From: Leifsonia sp. TF02-11
GTDB lineage: Bacteria > Actinomycetota > Actinomycetes > Actinomycetales > Microbacteriaceae
Length of the DNA stretch: 64,000 nt
Direction: 5' to 3'
Assembly (NCBI RefSeq): GCF_017565305.1
Contig: NZ_JAGEKP010000017.1
Location: forward strand, 62,001-126,000
This document shows, piece by piece, positions 2,567-10,123 of this stretch. Every line of letters begins with the position of its first letter. Within the stretch, counting starts at the first letter, position 1. The translations under genes and the position numbers were made by a program. Below the pieces are notes generated by a model that was given only the letters and a program-made list of their open reading frames with translations, did not search any database and was not told the origin of the DNA.

Positions 2567-2712
2567 GGTGTGGTGCTCCTTCCAAGCACTAGACAGCTTG
2601 GGATGCCAACCTGAGCGTTCTATTTGCGGGTCCTGTGGGCGACCTTCCGCCTCCCGATGACTCTCCACAACGTACCGAATGCAAGCGGTGTGAGGGAGCC
2701 CCTCGCCTGCCC

Positions 2713-2718
2713 TAGCCT
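2713..2718 (+). promoter_or_regulatory. -10 element of dapC-like gene
   Basis: TAGCCT lies 28 bases before the ATG at 2747. It predicts a leader of about 20 bases that contains the GAGAGG ribosome binding site. No clear -35 is visible. Confidence 0.4.
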
Positions 2719-2746
2719 GGGTCCGGGACAGGACGAGAGGGTGACG

Positions 2747-3943
2747 ATGACGGTAACCGGAGCGTGGCGGGCGGCCGCCGGGGGCGCTGGCCTGCTGGGT
2801 GCGGACGGCGCGGTGCGCCCGACGATCTTCGCCGAGATGAGCGCCCTCGCCGTGCGCACGGGCGCGATCAACCTCGGGCAGGGCTTCCCCGACGAGGACG
2901 GCCCCGGCGTGGTGCTCGACACCGCAATCGCCGCCATCCGCGACGGCGCCAACCAGTACCCGCCCGGCATCGGCATCCCGCTGCTGCGCCAGGCCGTCGC
3001 CGACCACCAGCGCCGCTTCTACGGGCTGGAGTTCGACCCCGACCGCGAGGTCCTCGTGACGGCGGGCGCGACGGAGGCCATCGCCGCGACGCTCCTCGCC
3101 CTTCTCGAGCCGGGCGACGAGGTGGTCACCTTCGAGCCGTTCTACGACGAATACGGCGCGGTGATCGCGCTGGCCGGCGGCGTGCACAAGACAGTGCCGC
3201 TCGAACCGCCCGCGTTCCGGCCCGACCTGGACCGGCTGCGCAGCACGGTGTCCGACCGGACGCGCGTCATCCTGGTGAACACACCGCACAACCCGACGGG
3301 GGCCGTGCTCGACCGCGAGACGCTGCAGACGGTGGTCGACCTCGCCGAGCGGCACGACGCCGTCATCGTGACCGACGAGGTCTACGAGCACCTCACGTTC
3401 GGCCCGCGGCACATCCCGGTCGCCACGCTCGACGGCGCGCGCGAGCGGACCGTGACGATCTCCTCCGGTGGCAAGACGTTCAACACGACGGGGTGGAAGG
3501 TGGGCTGGCTCACCGCCCCGGCGGAACTGGTGACGGCCGTCCTCGCCGTCAAGCAGTTCCTCACGTATGTGAACGGCGCACCGTTCCAGCCGGCGATCGC
3601 TGCCGGGCTCGCCCTCCCCGACGAGTTCTTCACCGGGATCGCCGCCGCCCTCGCCCACAAGCGCGACGTGCTCTCGGCCGGCCTGCAGGCCGCCGGGTTC
3701 GAGGTGCATCCGAGCGACGGGACGTACTTCGTCGTCGCGGACGCGGCGGCGCTCGGGCATCCCGACGCGGTGGAGTTCTGCCGCCGGCTCCCCGAACTCG
3801 CCGGGGTCGTGGCCGTGCCGCTCGCCGCCTTCTGCCGCGACGACTACGCCGCCCGCACCGCGTCGCTCGTGCGGTTCGCCTTCTGCAAGCGTGTGGATGT
3901 GCTCGAGGAGGCGGCACGCCGGCTGGCGTCGTTGCGCTCGTGA
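2747..3943 (+). CDS. dapC: DapC-like PLP-dependent aminotransferase
   Basis: A 398-residue fold-type I aminotransferase. Visible motifs are INLGQGFPDEDGPG near the N-terminus, NTPHNPTG, TDEVYEHLTF and the PLP lysine K243 in SSGGKTFNTTGWKVGW. From memory of the family, the sequence is close along its length to M. tuberculosis Rv0858c, N-succinyldiaminopimelate aminotransferase, which makes the lysine/peptidoglycan precursor between DapD and DapE. Both dapD and dapE occur later in this window, which supports the call. Related methionine/kynurenine/glutamine transaminases share these motifs, so the substrate is an inference. The ATG at 2747 has GAGAGG six bases upstream; a GTG at 2741 lies inside that site. 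Confidence 0.75.
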   Translation: MTVTGAWRAAAGGAGLLGADGAVRPTIFAEMSALAVRTGAINLGQGFPDEDGPGVVLDTAIAAIRDGANQYPPGIGIPLLRQAVADHQRRFYGLEFDPDREVLVTAGATEAIAATLLALLEPGDEVVTFEPFYDEYGAVIALAGGVHKTVPLEPPAFRPDLDRLRSTVSDRTRVILVNTPHNPTGAVLDRETLQTVVDLAERHDAVIVTDEVYEHLTFGPRHIPVATLDGARERTVTISSGGKTFNTTGWKVGWLTAPAELVTAVLAVKQFLTYVNGAPFQPAIAAGLALPDEFFTGIAAALAHKRDVLSAGLQAAGFEVHPSDGTYFVVADAAALGHPDAVEFCRRLPELAGVVAVPLAAFCRDDYAARTASLVRFAFCKRVDVLEEAARRLASLRS

Positions 3944-3962: not shown

Positions 3963-4769
3963 TCAGTCGTTCGGCTCCACCCGGTAGCGGCGCAGCTGCA
4001 GGGCCGGATTCCGTCTGCGAACGTCCGCGACGCGCTCTGTCGAGACTTCGGCGACCGCGACGCCGGTCGTCTCGCCGAGGCCCGCGAGCACGACGCCCAT
4101 CGGGTCGACGATCACGCTGTTGCCCACGCCGATGGGCGGCGTGTGGTCCGCTGCTGCGACGTAGAGGGTGTTCTCGATGGCGCGCGCGGTCAGCAGGGTC
4201 GACCAGTGGTGCTCCTTGAGCGGTCCGCGCACCCACTCGGCCGGCACGGCGACGAGGTCGGCGCCGGCGTCGACCAGCCGACGGGTGACCTCGGGAAAGC
4301 GCAGGTCGTAGCAGGTCTGCATCCCGACGCGGAGGCCGTCGACCTCGAACACCTCCGGCAGGGCGAGGTCGCCGGGAACCACCCAGTCGGACTCGGTCGC
4401 GCCGAACGCGTCGTAGAGGTGCTGCTTGCGGTAGACCGCCAGGGTCGAGCCGTCCGGTCCGACCGCGACGAGGGTGTTCGCGAACTTGTCGTGGATTCCC
4501 GTCCGCTCGACGAGCCCGGCGATCGCGAAGACACCGTGCTCGCGCGCCGCCGTGCCCAGCGACTGCACGAACTCGCCGTCGAGCGGCTCGGCGTTGCGCG
4601 CGAAGGAGGGGCCGAGCGGGTCGGCGAAGTACGACGAGTACTCCGGGAAAACGACCAGGCGCGCTCCGCGGGCTGCGGCGACGGCGAGGAGGCCCGCGAC
4701 CAGATCGCGGTTGTGGACACGATCGTCGCCCGGCGTGAACTGGGCGACGGCGACGCCGACCCCGCTCAC
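3963..4769 (-). CDS. Nitrilase-superfamily carbon-nitrogen hydrolase
   Basis: A 268-residue cytosolic amidohydrolase with the complete Glu-Lys-Cys triad: E43 in VVFPEYSSY, K115 in VYRKQHLYD and C153 in MQTCYDLRFPE. The family cleaves omega-amides, carbamoyl or deaminated-glutathione-type substrates; the specific substrate cannot be read from sequence. It is the last gene of a seven-gene operon. Its GTG start overlaps the histidine kinase stop by four bases (GTGA), so translation is probably coupled. It ends 19 bases from the convergent dapC-like stop. Its place at the end of a signalling and small-molecule operon suggests it acts on the same metabolite as the PIG-L, ATP-grasp and PHP proteins upstream, but that is inference. 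Confidence 0.88.
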   Translation of the reverse strand: MSGVGVAVAQFTPGDDRVHNRDLVAGLLAVAAARGARLVVFPEYSSYFADPLGPSFARNAEPLDGEFVQSLGTAAREHGVFAIAGLVERTGIHDKFANTLVAVGPDGSTLAVYRKQHLYDAFGATESDWVVPGDLALPEVFEVDGLRVGMQTCYDLRFPEVTRRLVDAGADLVAVPAEWVRGPLKEHHWSTLLTARAIENTLYVAAADHTPPIGVGNSVIVDPMGVVLAGLGETTGVAVAEVSTERVADVRRRNPALQLRRYRVEPND

Positions 4770-6544
4770 GGTGCGGCCTCCGCGCCGGGCACCGCCTCGG
4801 CGACCGGCGCAGGGGTCTCGATCGGGAGGCGGAGGCTGATGGACGTCCCGACGCCCTCCTCGCTCGCGATGTCGAGCCGGCCGCCGTGGGCCGTGACGAT
4901 CGCCTTCGTGATGGTGAGGCCGAGGCCGACGCCGGGTACGGCGTTCCGCGTGGCCGTCGAGGCGCGGAAGAACCGCTGCGAGAGCTGGCTCAGCTCGACC
5001 GCCGGGATGCCGATTCCGGTGTCGGTGACCGCGACCACCGCCGCGTCGCCGTCCCGCCGCAGCGAGACCGTGACGCTGCCGCCCGCCGGCGTGAACTTGA
5101 GCGCGTTGGAGACCAGGTTGTCGACGGCCTGGCCCAGTCGAACAGTGTCGCCGCGCACGTCGACGGGCTCGTCCGGCACCTCCATCACCAGCGCGACCCC
5201 TGCGGCGGCTGCGCCCGGCCGGGCCGACTCCACCGAGGCGGAGACGACGGAGCGCAGCTCCGCGTCCGTGATGTCGATCGGGAACCTCCCCGACTCGACT
5301 TGCGCGGTGAAGAGCAGGTCTCCGACCAACCGGAGCAGGCGGTGGGCATTTCGCTCCGCGACGCCCAGGTACTGCAGCTGCTCGTCGGAGAGCGGCGCCT
5401 CGTCGTCGTCGCGCATCAGCTCCAGGTAGCCCAGGATCGAGCTGAGCGGCGTGCGCAGCTCGTGCGAGATGAGACCGACGAACTCGTCCTTCAGCCGCGC
5501 GAACTCGCGGGCCTGGGTCATGTCGGTGGCGACGAAGATGAATCCGACCCTGTGGCCGTTCTCATCGATCCGCGGGGTCGCCGCCACCTGCACGGGAACG
5601 TGCTTGCCGTCCGCGCGCACGTACGTCCAGTCGCGCACGTCCGCGTAGCCTGCCCGCACGGTGTCGACCAGAGCCGAGAAGTCGTCGGCGCTGACCACGG
5701 TGGTGAAACGCGCGTCCATGTCGCGCAGCCGATCCTCGAGCTCGCTCACCAGGTGGAACTCGATGACCCGCCGATCGTGACCGAGGACCTGCGCCTCGGT
5801 CAGGCCGAGCATCTTCTCCGCACCCGGGTTCCAGACGTCGATCACGCCGTCGAGGTCCGTGCCGATCACGGACTGCTCGGTGACGGCGTTCCAGATGCTC
5901 TGGATGAGCCGGTTCGCGGTCTTGAGCCGCGCTTCGTTGAGCACCAGCTCGTCCTGCGTGCGCTGGGCCTGCTCGAGCAGTTCCTCGCGCTGGGCGGCCA
6001 CGGCACGGGAGGCGGCCAGCTGCACGCGGGACCGGTGGGCGATCTCGTTGACGACGGCGGCGACGATCAGATAGATGACCGGGGAGAAGAAGGCGCGCAG
6101 GAGGTCCGCCGCGCTGGTCGCGGCATGATCCACCAGGATCGGGCCGAGCAGGACGACGAAGATGCCCGCCGCGGCGATGACGATGTTGCGACGCCCCTCC
6201 TCTGTCGCGATCCAGACGAACGGCAGCAGCAGGATGACGCCGATCGCCGACGTCGAGCCTCCTGTGCCGATCCGCATCAACGCGATCGACATCATCGCGA
6301 CGAGCGGGACGGCGACCGCCCAGGCGGACGGGATCTGCCGCCAGGGCACGAGCAGCGAGAGCAGCAGCGCTCCGATCATCACCAGGGTGGCACCGATGAT
6401 GAAGACCGGAAGGTGCGCGCTCATCACGCCGGGGATGAAGGTCAGTCCGAGCGCGATAGTGAAGCCGACGAGAGTCGGCACCAGCTTGAGGAAGACGGAG
6501 GGCGAGTCCAGCGGGATCCGACCCAGCCAGCGGTCGACGGTCAT
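4766..6544 (-). CDS. Membrane PAS sensor histidine kinase
   Basis: A 592-residue sensor kinase. Residues 15 to about 155 hold about six hydrophobic helices with very short loops, with no large extracytoplasmic domain. A coiled linker follows, then a PAS domain (about 205-345; GTDLDGVIDVWNPGAEKMLGL, ending in IFVATDMTQ). The HisKA domain has phospho-acceptor H361 in GLISHELRTPL. The HATPase domain has an N box (NLVSNALKF), G1 (DTGIGIP) and G2 (GVGLGLTITK). All catalytic motifs are intact, so it should be active. The start ATG overlaps the response regulator stop by four bases. The lack of a periplasmic sensor loop points to sensing within the membrane or a cytoplasmic ligand in PAS. The partners are probably the two receivers encoded upstream. 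Confidence 0.93.
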   Translation of the reverse strand: MTVDRWLGRIPLDSPSVFLKLVPTLVGFTIALGLTFIPGVMSAHLPVFIIGATLVMIGALLLSLLVPWRQIPSAWAVAVPLVAMMSIALMRIGTGGSTSAIGVILLLPFVWIATEEGRRNIVIAAAGIFVVLLGPILVDHAATSAADLLRAFFSPVIYLIVAAVVNEIAHRSRVQLAASRAVAAQREELLEQAQRTQDELVLNEARLKTANRLIQSIWNAVTEQSVIGTDLDGVIDVWNPGAEKMLGLTEAQVLGHDRRVIEFHLVSELEDRLRDMDARFTTVVSADDFSALVDTVRAGYADVRDWTYVRADGKHVPVQVAATPRIDENGHRVGFIFVATDMTQAREFARLKDEFVGLISHELRTPLSSILGYLELMRDDDEAPLSDEQLQYLGVAERNAHRLLRLVGDLLFTAQVESGRFPIDITDAELRSVVSASVESARPGAAAAGVALVMEVPDEPVDVRGDTVRLGQAVDNLVSNALKFTPAGGSVTVSLRRDGDAAVVAVTDTGIGIPAVELSQLSQRFFRASTATRNAVPGVGLGLTITKAIVTAHGGRLDIASEEGVGTSISLRLPIETPAPVAEAVPGAEAAP

Positions 6545-6930
6545 ACGGTCTCCACCAGCCCGAGCATCGACCGGATGCGCTCGGAGAGGACTCGGGGGCT
6601 GAACGGTTTGATGATGAAGGAGTCGGACCGGTTGGCGACCACGCCGTGATCGGTGAGCAGCTGCACGGAGGCGGACACCATCAGGATGAGCGTGTCCTTC
6701 GTCGCGTCGTCGCCGCGGATCGCCTCGGCGACCTCGACCCCGTTGAGGCCCGGCATCGAGATGTCGAGCACGGCGAGGTCGATACCGCCCTCGCCCACGG
6801 CGTCGAGCGCCGCGCGGCCGTTGTCGACGGCGGCCACGATCTCGACGCCGGCGCGGTTGGCGGCGATCACCATCAGGCCGCGGATGTCGTCGTCGTCGTC
6901 CGCGATCACGATGCGCTTGACGTCGCTCAC
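6541..6930 (-). CDS. Single-domain response regulator (receiver only)
   Basis: A 129-residue receiver domain with nothing after it. It has the acidic pocket (VIADDDDD), phospho-acceptor D56 in VLDISMPGLNG, the signalling Ser in MVSAS and the lysine in FIIKPFSP. With no output domain it must act by protein contact or as a phosphate relay, in the CheY manner. The start is a GTG at 6930 whose GTGA overlaps the stop of the small membrane gene. The kinase gene follows directly with an ATGA overlap, so the cognate kinase is very likely that gene. Longer in-frame starts further upstream would run back through the small gene and are not needed. Confidence 0.9.
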   Translation of the reverse strand: MSDVKRIVIADDDDDIRGLMVIAANRAGVEIVAAVDNGRAALDAVGEGGIDLAVLDISMPGLNGVEVAEAIRGDDATKDTLILMVSASVQLLTDHGVVANRSDSFIIKPFSPRVLSERIRSMLGLVETV

Positions 6931-7082
6931 GAGAAGAACACCACCCGCACTACGACGACCGCGGCGATCACGAGAAGCGCGATGGCGCCGTAGATCGGCA
7001 GACGCAGCTCCCACCTCCGGTTGCGGTCGATCTCGCGCTGCAACTCCTCGCGCTGCACGCGGGTCAGCTGGACGGGGCTCAT
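6927..7082 (-). CDS. Small single-pass membrane protein, 51 residues
   Basis: A 51-residue protein with a charged N-terminal half (about residues 1-27, likely an amphipathic helix) and one C-terminal transmembrane helix of about 22 residues (YGAIALLVIAAVVVVRVVFFS). Both ends overlap their neighbours by four bases, inside an operon with no other gaps, which is strong evidence that it is real. No family is recognised. The shape (cytoplasmic helix plus tail anchor) would fit an adaptor or membrane tether for one of the operon enzymes or for the kinase, but that is a guess. Confidence 0.7.
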   Translation of the reverse strand: MSPVQLTRVQREELQREIDRNRRWELRLPIYGAIALLVIAAVVVVRVVFFS

Positions 7083-7831
7083 CGGCGCTCCTCCCGTTCC
7101 GAGGCCTCCACGGCGTCGAGCACGGCCGTCACCCGGTCGTATCGGCCGACATCGGCCGCGTCGTGACTGTCGGTGGACGCAACGATACGCGCTCCGGCGT
7201 CCCTGAGGGCCAGCACGGCGACCGGACCGGGGCACCCCCACTTCTCGTTCACCTCGACGAGGGTGCCGGTCGCCGCCGCCGCGGACGCCCAGGCCGCCAG
7301 CCGGTCCGCGCCGAGTTGCTCCTCGGAGAGTCCCACCTTCGGCAGGATCGAGAACCAGTGCGCGAGCTGCGCGTGCCTGGTGCCCTCCATGGCCCGGATG
7401 CTCGCCTCGATCAGGAGGTCGAGAGCGTCGTCCGCCGACAGGCCGTCGGCGAGGCGGCGGCGCGTCTCGTCCGGCGACCACGGCCCGTCGGTGCCGGGGA
7501 ACTGGTGGTCGCCGATCACGATCGCGTCGACGCCGCCCGCTCCGACCACGAGATCGGCGGGGATGTCGACCGCACCGGAGGCGTCGAGCAGCTTGGCCTC
7601 CACGCCCGTGAGCACGGTGAGGCCCTCCGGCGCGGGCTCGGCCGCCACCGCGGCGAGGAACTCGGGCACCCAGGTGGTGGACGCGCGCACGTGGTCGGTC
7701 AGCCGGACCCGGGCGAGCCCCGCCGCGGACGCCGCCGCGAGGTTCTCCGCGACACTGCTCCTGGCATCGTCCGAGAACGTGGAGTGCACGTGGAAGTCGC
7801 CGCGCAACAGGGCGCGCAGACGATCGGTCAC
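7079..7831 (-). CDS. PHP-domain metallophosphoesterase
   Basis: A 250-residue PHP-fold protein, similar in layout to histidinol-phosphate phosphatase-type PHP enzymes. Metal-binding motifs are visible in order: GDFHVHSTFSDD near residue 12, RLTDHVR, LTGVEAKLLD, IVIGDHQFPG and the late ASTDSHDAADV. The active site looks intact. The substrate is unknown; the family removes phosphate from small molecules. There are 4-base overlaps with the ATP-grasp gene before it and the small membrane gene after it. It is unlikely to be the histidine-pathway enzyme, because no his genes are nearby and the neighbours are a sensor kinase and ligase. Confidence 0.87.
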   Translation of the reverse strand: MTDRLRALLRGDFHVHSTFSDDARSSVAENLAAASAAGLARVRLTDHVRASTTWVPEFLAAVAAEPAPEGLTVLTGVEAKLLDASGAVDIPADLVVGAGGVDAIVIGDHQFPGTDGPWSPDETRRRLADGLSADDALDLLIEASIRAMEGTRHAQLAHWFSILPKVGLSEEQLGADRLAAWASAAAATGTLVEVNEKWGCPGPVAVLALRDAGARIVASTDSHDAADVGRYDRVTAVLDAVEASEREERR

Positions 7832-8838
7832 TTCTCCGGTCCCTCCGCGTGGGCCGCGTTCTCCGAGACGAGGACGTCGGCAGGGTCGAGGAAGACGTCT
7901 TCGAGGTAGCGCACGTTCGCGAGCTCGGTGAAGTCGACCGCGGAGGGCACGGGTCGGCCAAGCACGAGGTCGAGGAGCAGCGACGGCATGTCCACCCCCG
8001 CCGCGATCGTCAGCGGCATCGCGCCGGGGAAGCGCGGGTTGACCTCCAGCAGAGCGGGGACGCCGTCGCTGCTGTACCGGAGCTGCACATTGGCGACACC
8101 GGTGAGCCCGATGGCCCTGGCGACGTCGGAGGCCGTCTGCGACAGCTCGTCCCTGCGCACCGTCCGGCCCGCGATGGAGACGCCGGAGTCGACCCGCTCG
8201 CGGGAGCGCGGCACGGCGGCGATCACCGTGCCGTCCAGGCCCGCGAGCACGTCCACCGAGAACTCCTCGCCCGGCAGGTTCTCCTGCACCAGGATGCTCT
8301 GGTCCTCCCCCAGCGCCTCCAGGGCGGCACGATCGGCGATCAGGCGCACGCCGCGCGAGCCCGCACCGCTGCGCGGCTTGATAATCACGGGGAAGACCCA
8401 GTCCGCGCCGACACCGTCCCGGTCCAGGAGCCGGGTCTCCGGGATGCGCGCCTTGCCGTCGACGGCCTGCGCGAGGCGGTACTTGTCGAGGCAGGTCACG
8501 AGCGTCTCGTGGCTGGGCGCTGCCAGCGCCGTGCCGACGGCGGCGAGGTCGTCGCGGCGCGCGGCGAGGCCGGGCAGCTCCACATCGACGGTCGAGAAGA
8601 GCACAGCGATGTCGTCAGTGGCGCACAGGGCGATCACGTCGTCGACGAACGACGGTGCCTTCCCCGGCGGCACGATCCGCCTGGCGGATTCTGGCACGAG
8701 ATACAGGCCGCTCGCCCAGCCGTCCATGTCGGCGGCGTAGACCTCGACGTCGTCGCGCTTGAGCAGCGAGCGGATGACGGCGATACCCGCCGGGCCGCCG
8801 GCTCCCGTGACGAGGACGCGGGTGCGGGATGCGGTCAT
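7828..8838 (-). CDS. ATP-grasp ligase, carbamoyl-phosphate-synthase-like
   Basis: A 336-residue protein with a pre-ATP-grasp Rossmann-like segment (VLVTGAGGPAGIAVIRSLL) and an ATP-grasp domain. The ATP-binding strand is FPVIIKPRSGAGSRGVRLI, the hinge is ILVQENLPGEEFSVDVLAG and the metal-binding end is LLEVNPRFPGAMPLTIAAG. Such enzymes activate a carboxylate as acyl-phosphate and join it to an amine or thiol. Within the operon, a deacetylase that frees an amine (PIG-L) followed by a ligase that could use it is a chemically sensible pair. That pairing is inference. It overlaps both neighbours by four bases. Confidence 0.88.
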   Translation of the reverse strand: MTASRTRVLVTGAGGPAGIAVIRSLLKRDDVEVYAADMDGWASGLYLVPESARRIVPPGKAPSFVDDVIALCATDDIAVLFSTVDVELPGLAARRDDLAAVGTALAAPSHETLVTCLDKYRLAQAVDGKARIPETRLLDRDGVGADWVFPVIIKPRSGAGSRGVRLIADRAALEALGEDQSILVQENLPGEEFSVDVLAGLDGTVIAAVPRSRERVDSGVSIAGRTVRRDELSQTASDVARAIGLTGVANVQLRYSSDGVPALLEVNPRFPGAMPLTIAAGVDMPSLLLDLVLGRPVPSAVDFTELANVRYLEDVFLDPADVLVSENAAHAEGPEK

Positions 8839-9902
8839 TCCTGGTTCCTCCGGATTCGGGCGTCGGTCTGCATGGCAGACGCCGGGATGGAGATGTCCGC
8901 GGTGTCGCGCATCACCTCCAGCGGCTCGCAGTTGGTGCCGCCGCCGAACCGAGACCAGTAGCGGGCGGTGGCGAGGACGAAGTCGTGATCCAGGTACGAG
9001 CGCAGCTCGGTCTGGGAGCGGAAGCAGTCGATGAGTCGCAGCTTGGCGTCGGTGAAGCCGTCGATCGGCACGAATCGGGTCGGCCGGAAGTCGATCGTCG
9101 CGGACGGGCTCTGGAAGCAGCAGACGGTGCGGACGTTGCGGGTCGCGACGTTGACGGCCGCGTGCACCGCCCTGTGGTCCTGGTGGCGGTCGTGCGCGGA
9201 GTGCGTGTAGACGATGTCGGGCTGCACTTCGGCGACGACGCGCTCGATGATGCTCACCGTCGGGTCGGCGGCCGAGATGCGGGTGTCTTCGAGGTCTTCG
9301 AGGAACAGCCGCGCGCCGAGCAGCTCGGCGGCGGCGAGGGACTCGTGCTGGCGGTCGTCGGCGTCGCCGCCGCGGGCACCGCGCGAGAGCGTCAGGATGA
9401 CCACCTGGTTGCCGGCGTCGCGGTGGGCGGACAGGATGCCGCCGACACCGATCTCGACGTCGTCGGGGTGCGCTCCGATCGCCAGGACCACCTGCTGCTG
9501 GCTGGCTGCGCGCTTAGTGCGGCCCTCCTCGGCGAGACGGTTCACGATGGCGACGAGCTCGGACGACGCGATGGGCTTGGTGAGGAACTCGTCGGCCTGC
9601 GCCCGCAGCGCGGAGACCGCGTAGTCCACCGACACGTGCGCGGTCATGACCACGACAGGGAGCCCTGGGTGCCTGCTGCGCACCTCGCGCAGCAGGTCGA
9701 TGCCCGAGATCCCCGGCATCTCGATGTCGGTGATGACGACATCGGGGTCGAACGAGGCGATCGTGTCGAGGGCGACGGAGGGATCGGTGACGGCGACGAC
9801 CTGCGCGTCCGCACGCTTCTCGAGCACGGTCTTCATGTAGAAGGCGACGTCGGGGTCGTCCTCGATCACGCACACGCGGTACTTCTGGGCCGAATTCGCC
9901 AT
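8835..9902 (-). CDS. Response-regulator receiver fused to PIG-L deacetylase
   Basis: A 355-residue two-domain protein. Residues 1-125 are a receiver: acidic pair in CVIEDDPDV, phospho-acceptor D59 in VITDIEMPGISG, Thr in VVMTAH and Lys in FLTKPIAS. Residues about 137-330 are a PIG-L/LmbE zinc deacetylase with the first metal motif AIGAHPDDVEIG and the second HSAHDRHQDHRAVH. The family removes N-acetyl groups from GlcNAc-type substrates (MshB in mycothiol synthesis is an example). The fusion implies an enzyme switched by phosphorylation. It is the first gene of the operon. The ATG at 9902 is chosen because AGGAG then sits six bases away; the ATG at 9908 would abut that site. Confidence 0.9.
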   Translation of the reverse strand: MANSAQKYRVCVIEDDPDVAFYMKTVLEKRADAQVVAVTDPSVALDTIASFDPDVVITDIEMPGISGIDLLREVRSRHPGLPVVVMTAHVSVDYAVSALRAQADEFLTKPIASSELVAIVNRLAEEGRTKRAASQQQVVLAIGAHPDDVEIGVGGILSAHRDAGNQVVILTLSRGARGGDADDRQHESLAAAELLGARLFLEDLEDTRISAADPTVSIIERVVAEVQPDIVYTHSAHDRHQDHRAVHAAVNVATRNVRTVCCFQSPSATIDFRPTRFVPIDGFTDAKLRLIDCFRSQTELRSYLDHDFVLATARYWSRFGGGTNCEPLEVMRDTADISIPASAMQTDARIRRNQE

Positions 9903-9926
9903 ACGCATCTCCTGGGTCCTGCGACG

Positions 9927-9932
9927 ACTCTA
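9927..9932 (-). promoter_or_regulatory. -10 element of the seven-gene signalling operon
   Basis: TAGAGT on the minus strand, 24 bases before the ATG at 9902. Downstream is CCCAGGAG as ribosome binding site. No convincing -35 is seen. It is the only promoter-like signal near the operon head, and the later genes overlap without gaps. Confidence 0.45.
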
Positions 9933-10046: not shown

Positions 10047-10123
10047 CGCGGGGTGGAGCAGCTCGGTAGCTCGCTGGGCTCATAACCCAGAGGTCGTAGG
10101 TTCAAATCCTGCCCCCGCAACCA
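10047..10123 (+). tRNA. Initiator tRNA-fMet (anticodon CAT)
   Basis: A 77-base cloverleaf with encoded CCA. The acceptor strands are CGCGGGG and CCCCGCA, leaving a C1-A72 mismatch. The anticodon stem is CTGGG/CCCAG, with three consecutive G:C pairs next to the loop CTCATAA, and the D stem has A11:T24. These three features define bacterial initiator tRNA and separate it from elongator tRNA-Met and lysidine-modified tRNA-Ile. The T loop is TTCAAAT. Confidence 0.97.

What the first reader, a model, noticed from the sequence alone, without database searches (positions are those of the whole stretch)
3963..9932. Seven-gene, fully overlapping signalling operon whose outputs look like enzymes, not DNA binding
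Seen: seven minus-strand genes, each junction a 4-base ATGA or GTGA overlap, with one promoter-like -10 at the head. Order: receiver/PIG-L fusion, ATP-grasp ligase, PHP phosphoesterase, 51-residue membrane protein, single receiver, membrane PAS kinase, nitrilase-type hydrolase. Established: the families are a deacetylase, an amide-type ligase, a phosphoesterase and an amidohydrolase. Inference: a sensor kinase controls, by phosphorylation, an enzyme set that remodels one amino-sugar, amide or phosphate-bearing small molecule, perhaps a membrane-associated signal or envelope precursor. I know of no described pathway with this gene set.
Basis: partly seen in the sequence, partly recalled or inferred. 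Interest (0 to 1): 0.8.

Follow-up and report, generated by a model that had tools for sequence, protein, structure and literature searches.

The report
Phospho-switched sugar deacetylase and synthase operon
A soil-bacterium operon links a membrane sensor directly to a sugar-trimming enzyme, and comparison with relatives shows that its missing partner, a membrane sugar-polymer-type synthase, lies elsewhere in this genome.

Summary
The seven genes, their order and all six 4-base overlaps are real; the window is a Leifsonia close to L. shinshuensis. Comparison corrects three points.

(1) A member is missing. In 70 of 80 named loci a membrane family-2 glycosyltransferase (GT2; PgaC/NodC-like, not a member) follows PHP. 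GT2 and PHP occur in the same 14 of 150 family genomes and the same 3 of 396 phylum genomes. In the window's genus GT2 lies elsewhere (28 of 28 genomes); trees suggest a replacement from another lineage.

(2) The 51-residue membrane protein belongs to GT2: such an ORF follows 84 of 84 operon GT2 genes, and here it stayed behind when GT2 left.

(3) The nitrilase is a neighbour: adjacent in 28 of 94 loci, and often beside an aminotransferase where there is no operon.

The constant unit is a receiver fused to a PIG-L deacetylase, usually beside the kinase; ATP-grasp, PHP, GT2 and the small protein form an optional cassette. Best reading: a sensor kinase switches N-deacetylation of a hexosamine glycoconjugate made by GT2 and processed by ligase and phosphoesterase. 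The wiring is well supported; phosphotransfer and product are inference. My searches found no description in print.

The parts
8835..9908 (-). Receiver domain fused to PIG-L (LmbE-type) N-deacetylase, 357 aa; proposed phospho-controlled output enzyme
   Evidence: Pfam Response_reg 12-122 and PIG-L 142-255; key residues in 91 of 91 rows; no predicted membrane helix
7828..8838 (-). ATP-grasp ligase, 336 aa (ATPgrasp_Ter / PRK12767 type)
   Evidence: closest solved sequence 2pn1; alignment A3
7079..7831 (-). PHP phosphoesterase, 250 aa
   Evidence: YcdX the only PDB match at 0.001; His/Asp/Glu set conserved in at least 98% of 92 rows
6927..7082 (-). 51-aa single-helix membrane protein; inferred partner of the GT2 synthase, left in place after GT2 was lost from this spot
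   Evidence: such an ORF follows 84 of 84 operon GT2 genes, and follows PHP only in the 10 loci without GT2; 0 of 8 relocated GT2 genes examined have it; 0 of 11 loci without the cassette
6541..6930 (-). Single-domain response regulator, 129 aa
   Evidence: Pfam Response_reg; Asp56, Ser86, Lys108 in at least 97% of 39 rows
4766..6544 (-). Membrane sensor histidine kinase: six hydrophobic helices, PAS, HisKA, HATPase, 592 aa
3963..4769 (-). Nitrilase-superfamily amidase, 268 aa; neighbour joined to the operon tail, not core
2624..3943 (+). Class I aminotransferase, convergent with the nitrilase and its frequent neighbour in the family (the ORF start is probably further in)
10047..10123 (+). tRNA-Met upstream, divergent from the operon

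Best explanation
This is a two-component system whose output is an enzyme. A membrane PAS kinase senses an envelope or membrane signal and phosphorylates a receiver that is fused to a PIG-L N-deacetylase, with a second stand-alone receiver probably as a competing or relay partner. The deacetylase works with a cassette of ATP-grasp ligase, PHP phosphoesterase, a PgaC/NodC-like membrane GT2 synthase and a small single-helix partner of that synthase. [quoted passage not shown] the deacetylase frees an amine on it, or on its precursor, only when the kinase says so; the ATP-grasp enzyme caps that amine by amide formation; the phosphoesterase removes a phosphate from an intermediate. In Leifsonia the operon copy of GT2 was lost and replaced by a related GT2 at another chromosomal site, and the small partner stayed behind. 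Shown here: gene content, conservation, shared phyletic profile, fusion, intact active-site residues, displacement by tree. Inferred: phosphotransfer, substrate, order of steps, product.
For: Order receiver-PIG-L > ATP-grasp > PHP > GT2 > small ORF, usually > kinase, in named loci from 15 genera plus unnamed MAGs: of 80 named loci 70 have GT2; PHP > GT2 within -8 to +30 bases in 68 of these 70; ATP-grasp > PHP in 80 of 80; kinase within 1.5 kb after GT2 in 57 of 70. Same phyletic profile of PHP and GT2: 14 of 150 family genomes, the same ones, 9 of 85 genera; 3 of 396 in the phylum sample, the same ones; GT2 in 28 of 28 genomes of the window's genus. GT2 keeps DXD, ED and QxxRW residues in 40 of 40 rows (40 chosen by me from 68 of suitable length); best NCBIfam model PgaC/IcaA, for the window genome's GT2 116.9 bits, then MftF, EpsU and NodC. 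Small ORF after GT2 84 of 84, against 0 of 93 after the deacetylase, 0 of 94 after ATP-grasp, 0 of 85 after the kinase and 10 of 94 after PHP, exactly the 10 loci that lack GT2. Trees: operon proteins group Leifsonia with Diaminobutyricibacter (100/99), whose GT2 groups with Sanguibacter (97/95); the solo Leifsonia GT2 groups elsewhere with a second, unlinked GT2 of G075 (100/100). A sister gene set with PIG-L, GT2 and ATP-grasp also carries a UDP-GlcNAc 2-epimerase over its cut-off and a HAD phosphatase (L182), which points to UDP-HexNAc as feedstock.
Against: Receiver-PIG-L exists without ATP-grasp, PHP, GT2 and the small protein in 11 of 25 family genomes, 9 of them with a kinase beside it, so the deacetylase also has work without the cassette. 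G040 has the four enzymes without receiver or kinase. The kinase match is far (9) or not in the fetched stretch (8) in 17 of 94 loci. The sensor region is not specific to the operon: 66 of 150 family genomes ring at 1e-6. GT2 scores far below the PgaC cut-off (115-137 against 422 bits), so polymer identity is open. No substrate, phosphotransfer or product is shown by any search. The 94-locus set holds at least four genomes twice, and related genomes are not independent.
Confidence: 0.6

Rival explanations
1. The deacetylase switch acts on a general envelope hexosamine (a peptidoglycan or lipid-linked precursor, or UDP-GlcNAc), and the ATP-grasp/PHP/GT2 cassette is a separate exopolysaccharide pathway that is merely co-transcribed with it.
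For: Receiver-PIG-L beside a kinase without the cassette in 9 of 11 such loci; in several loci the module sits at the same nitrilase-aminotransferase site with or without the cassette.
Against: In the family sample all 14 genomes with PHP and GT2 have receiver-PIG-L; the cassette lies directly behind it, mostly overlapping; the distant loci L173 and L174 keep the fusion.
Confidence: 0.22
2. A mycothiol- or bacillithiol-like small molecule: glycosyl transfer, dephosphorylation, PIG-L deacetylation, amide ligation.
For: Same four activities in logic (recalled); of the deacetylase models listed the protein scores best against BshB1, below its cut-off (82.5 against 182.5 bits).
Against: GT2 is an integral membrane protein with about six helices and not a GT4; the genome has no MshC over its cut-off; sister loci have an exosortase-like gene.
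Confidence: 0.1
3. One reading: all seven genes, nitrilase included, form one pathway on an amide-bearing small molecule.
For: The nitrilase overlaps the kinase gene by 4 bases here and is next to the operon in 28 of 94 loci (17 tail, 11 head).
Against: No match in the fetched stretch of the other 66 of 94 loci; present in 8 of 9 family genomes outside the genus, six of which have neither PHP nor GT2 nor receiver-PIG-L; beside an aminotransferase in 6 of 7 such loci read, the aminotransferase named by eye and checked by Pfam in the window and two loci; its best model is deaminated glutathione amidase, below the cut-off.
Confidence: 0.08

Closest known systems
PgaC/IcaA poly-beta-1,6-GlcNAc synthase loci (PgaC with small membrane PgaD, deacetylase PgaB)
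   Same: Processive-type membrane GT2, a small membrane partner encoded next to it, and a hexosamine N-deacetylase
   Different: GT2 far below the model cut-off; deacetylase is cytosolic PIG-L with a receiver, not PgaB; ATP-grasp and PHP added; control by a kinase (PgaD and PgaB features recalled)
NodC-NodB-NodA (Nod factor core)
   Same: Logic of GT2 chitooligosaccharide synthase, cytosolic deacetylase, then an enzyme that caps the freed amine (recalled)
   Different: PIG-L instead of NodB, ATP-grasp instead of NodA, plus PHP and kinase; NodC model 46-89 bits against a cut-off of 550 in four GT2 scanned
Exosortase-type PIG-L/GT2/ATP-grasp/WecB cluster found here in L182, L180 and L063
   Same: Homologous PIG-L, GT2 and ATP-grasp
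   Different: Exosortase-like protein, UDP-GlcNAc 2-epimerase and (scanned in L182 only, seen by eye in L180) a HAD phosphatase; no PHP or kinase match in these loci
Mycothiol/bacillithiol pathways
   Same: Glycosyl transfer, PIG-L deacetylation, amide ligation
   Different: Soluble GT4 enzymes and thiol product (recalled); no MshC over cut-off here
Response regulators with enzyme outputs (CheB, RpfG, PleD types; recalled)
   Same: Receiver fused to an enzyme
   Different: Output is a PIG-L deacetylase; my searches listed no paper on such a protein

Membership tests
Two-component system with enzymatic output | Kinase with HisKA and HATPase, and a receiver with conserved phospho-Asp fused to an enzyme | tested here: met
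Two-component system with enzymatic output | Phosphotransfer from this kinase to the fused receiver changes enzyme activity | not testable with these tools
   needs biochemistry
PIG-L / LmbE deacetylase | Domain match over cut-off and metal/catalytic residues (residue roles recalled from MshB) | tested here: met
   86.2 bits against 28.2; His147, Asp149, Asp150, His245 in 91 of 91
PgaC/IcaA poly-GlcNAc synthase | TIGR03937 over its cut-off | tested here: not met
   116.9, 136.5, 115.0 and 117.6 bits against 422.3 in the four GT2 scanned
NodC chitooligosaccharide synthase | TIGR04242 over its cut-off | tested here: not met
   46-89 bits against 550
Processive GT2 (cellulose/hyaluronan/chitin synthase type) | DXD, ED and QxxRW motifs with membrane helices after the catalytic domain (motif meanings recalled) | tested here: met
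   Asp152/Asp154, Glu245/Asp246, Gln282/Arg285/Trp286 invariant in 40 rows; one helix before and five after in L109
Mycothiol pathway | MshC (TIGR03447) over cut-off in the genome | tested here: not met
   240.4 against 485.1 bits
Deaminated glutathione amidase (nitrilase gene) | NF033621 over cut-off | tested here: not met
   234.9 against 355 bits

The most novel reading that the evidence does not exclude
A previously undescribed, phosphorylation-gated glycoconjugate pathway of Actinomycetota with Nod-factor-like logic: a membrane GT2 and its 44-90-residue helper build a hexosamine oligomer or glycolipid, a receiver-PIG-L fusion removes the N-acetyl group on command of a membrane kinase, and an ATP-grasp ligase caps the freed amine, so that sensing changes the chemistry of an envelope sugar directly and without a transcription step. 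The synthase gene was lost from the operon and replaced by a relative elsewhere in Leifsonia.
Probability: 0.35. Interest if true: 0.85.

Novelty: new variant of a known kind. Interest (0 to 1): 0.66.

Why it matters
If right, bacteria can switch the amine chemistry of an envelope glycan by phosphorylating a deacetylase itself, bypassing gene expression. It predicts one testable metabolite across Microbacterium, Leucobacter, Leifsonia, Blastococcus and others, gives a function to a small membrane protein that annotation would overlook, and shows how an operon's key gene can be found at another site from its phyletic profile.

Tried and rejected
Mycothiol-like pathway: looked for MshC in the own genome, none over the cut-off. 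Nitrilase as pathway member: rejected, with the caveat that it is next to the operon at either end in 28 of 94 loci; my first thought (note), that it joined only in the window's genus, was wrong. Small membrane protein as kinase accessory: rejected, it occurs in 8 loci without a matched kinase and in none of 11 cassette-less loci, 9 of which have a kinase. My first sequence-motif test for the small ORF was too strict (23 of 85) and was replaced by a length-and-hydrophobicity test with controls; its threshold was set after seeing examples. A first conservation run on receiver-PIG-L had only one row because of a length filter and was redone. Class-wide ATP-grasp hits: 19 of 296 genomes at 1e-50. 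With G000 and G040, five of the 19 carry this system (G000, G719, G728, G040, G590), two the exosortase-type set (G613, G619), six fetched ones neither, two of these with a weak PIG-L match nearby, and six were not fetched. Plasmids: no PHP match at 1e-30. Papers: ten searches, all that were allowed. Five returned no paper; of the ten papers listed by the other five I saw titles and the start of abstracts, none of which describes this operon. Two hold both 'GlcNAc-PI de-N-acetylase' and 'response regulator' (PMC6722419, PMC3281065); I did not open them. One paper was opened, at passages (PMC12419801), and is unrelated; one was not held. No structural evidence is used.
Full report
What is there. 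The seven minus-strand genes at 3963-9908 are real, in the stated order, and all six junctions are 4-base overlaps. Pfam gives receiver + PIG-L, ATP-grasp (ATPgrasp_Ter best), PHP, nothing for the 51-aa protein, receiver, PAS/HisKA/HATPase and CN-hydrolase. A tRNA-Met lies upstream on the other strand and a class I aminotransferase converges on the nitrilase. A promoter scan found no sigma-70-like site on the minus strand at the head. The window's genus is Leifsonia: the nearest named locus is Leifsonia shinshuensis DP-L11, PHP 94% identical.

Conservation in the genus. A receiver-PIG-L search of 60 relatives gave strong matches (2e-196 or better) in 27 of 28 same-genus genomes, own included; the 28th (G006) has its contig end inside the PHP gene. 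Of 26 same-genus loci fetched, 25 show all seven genes in order; 124 of 156 junctions are -4 by my start choice, all six in 8 of 26 loci. In two small genomes (G017, G022) the ATP-grasp and kinase matches are partial; G017 also has only a partial GT2 match and no nitrilase match in the locus.

The missing member. In another genus (G029) and another family (G040) a membrane GT2 follows the PHP gene. A GT2 search at 1e-40 then found one orthologue in all 28 same-genus genomes, never at the operon (G000: contig C23, 645718-647202; in two pieces in G024), plus G029 and G040, and none in the other 30 of 60. In a family sample PHP and GT2 were each found in 14 of 150 genomes, 9 of 85 genera, and these are the same genomes; all PHP hits were at 7.6e-90 or better with none between that and the limit of 1e-25. 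In a phylum sample each was found in 3 of 396, again the same. The two samples share some genomes, and related genomes are not independent; if genera were independent, a chance match of 9 of 85 would have a probability of about 2e-12. In the 11 of these 14 genomes outside the window's genus GT2 lies next to PHP (coordinates). ATP-grasp was not searched across the family sample; it is present in the operon of all 14.

Named loci. A scan of genome contigs with the PHP alignment confirmed 121 relatives and kept the best 80. Of these 80, 70 have GT2 and the 10 without are Leifsonia of the window's type; PHP > GT2 spacing is -8 to +30 in 68 of 70 (L119 +303, L126 -148 with my start choice); ATP-grasp > PHP in 80 of 80; the kinase lies within 1.5 kb after GT2 in 57 of 70. 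The other 13 are 11 Blastococcus (in 9 of them the best kinase match is weak and several kb upstream), one Janibacter and one short contig. The receiver and PIG-L share one ORF in 75 of 78; two exceptions have two tandem receiver-PIG-L genes, one (L120) looks split.

The small protein. A short ORF with a C-terminal hydrophobic helix directly follows GT2 in 84 of 84 loci, 8 of which have no matched kinase. The same test gave 0 of 93 after the deacetylase, 0 of 94 after ATP-grasp, 0 of 85 after the kinase and 10 of 94 after PHP; these ten are exactly the ten loci that lack GT2. None of 8 relocated Leifsonia GT2 genes examined has it, nor do 11 loci without the cassette. So the window's 51-aa gene marks the place from which GT2 went missing.

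Displacement. In a tree of PHP plus ATP-grasp the Leifsonia operon groups with Diaminobutyricibacter (100/99). In the GT2 tree Diaminobutyricibacter groups with Sanguibacter (97/95), while the solo Leifsonia GT2 groups with a second, unlinked GT2 of G075 (100/100) inside the Okibacterium/Frigoribacterium clade (100/100). The simplest account is replacement by a relative from another lineage. Rows flagged as long branches lie outside these groups, except that Sanguibacter is flagged in the PHP plus ATP-grasp tree, where it does not bear on the Leifsonia group.

Minimal unit. Receiver-PIG-L is in 25 of 150 family genomes at 1e-60: the 14 with PHP and GT2, plus 11. In the 11, no ATP-grasp, PHP or GT2 match over 45 bits lies in the fetched stretch (7 to 19 kb) and a kinase is next to it in 9. 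One of these 11 (G156, L196) is a 43% match whose receiver alone scores under 45 bits. So the deacetylase switch can stand without the trio; in this family PHP and GT2 were not seen without it. Outside the family G040 has the four enzymes without receiver or kinase.

Active sites. Receiver Asp17, Asp61, Thr89, Lys111 and PIG-L His147, Asp149, Asp150, His245 are in 91 of 91 rows. PHP His14, His16, Asp21, His47, Glu78, His109, His158, Asp221 and His223 are in at least 98% of 92 rows. GT2 keeps DXD, ED and QxxRW in 40 of 40 chosen rows. Residue roles are recalled from the families.

Nitrilase. It is found in 8 of 9 family genomes outside the genus, most of them without the operon, and beside an aminotransferase in 6 of 7 such loci read by eye. 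It is next to the operon in 28 of 94 loci (17 tail, 11 head), with no match in the fetched stretch of the other 66. In several loci the operon or the minimal unit sits at this nitrilase-aminotransferase site, which explains the adjacency without a shared pathway; a functional tie is not excluded.

Sister set. Three loci (L063, L180, L182) carry homologous PIG-L, GT2 and ATP-grasp with an exosortase-like gene and a UDP-GlcNAc 2-epimerase; L182 also has a HAD phosphatase. In L182 the exosortase signature TIGR04178 and WecB pass their cut-offs (Pfam's exosortase model does not), and GT2 again scores best with PgaC without passing.

Mechanism. The fused receiver must be cytosolic, so the N-deacetylation is cytosolic; a cytosolic deacetylase can act on a precursor, on a lipid-linked sugar or on a short chain before export, which favours NodC/HpnI-like logic over deacetylation of an exported polymer. 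This is inference. The ATP-grasp enzyme is the natural candidate to cap the freed amine; the phosphoesterase step is the least certain. The kinase may also act on the stand-alone receiver; which one it prefers is unknown. The sensor region is shared with other kinases of the family (66 of 150 genomes at 1e-6).

Verdict. 'Undescribed' rests on ten full-text searches of an open-licence library, which lacks most subscription papers, and on listings rather than full reading.

Noticed in passing
L180 4000-13000, L182 5900-12100, L063 8000-13600: A sister gene set: PIG-L, PgaC-like GT2, exosortase-like protein, ATP-grasp, UDP-GlcNAc 2-epimerase (and a HAD phosphatase in L182), with no match to this operon's kinase in the stretches read.
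   Followed up: partly
L148 6490-9021 and L162 6712-9000: Two tandem receiver-PIG-L genes of different subtypes in one operon; by eye the first resembles the subtype of G035, which lacks the cassette.
   Followed up: partly
L049 and L058: In two small genomes of the window's genus several operon genes give only partial matches, as if the pathway were decaying.
   Followed up: no
L176 8475-9968: G075 carries a second, unlinked GT2 that is the closest relative of the solo Leifsonia GT2 in the tree, beside its operon copy; it may point to the donor lineage.
   Followed up: partly
L045 and L064: G005 carries the operon near both ends of its single contig; probably untrimmed overlap of a circular chromosome.
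   Followed up: no
L189 7000-19000: G072 has receiver-PIG-L followed by a run of several kinases with related membrane sensor regions.
   Followed up: no
L173 3446-4861: Near the distant G565 operon, on the other strand, lies a gene that looks by eye like an MBOAT (alginate-type) O-acyltransferase.
   Followed up: no
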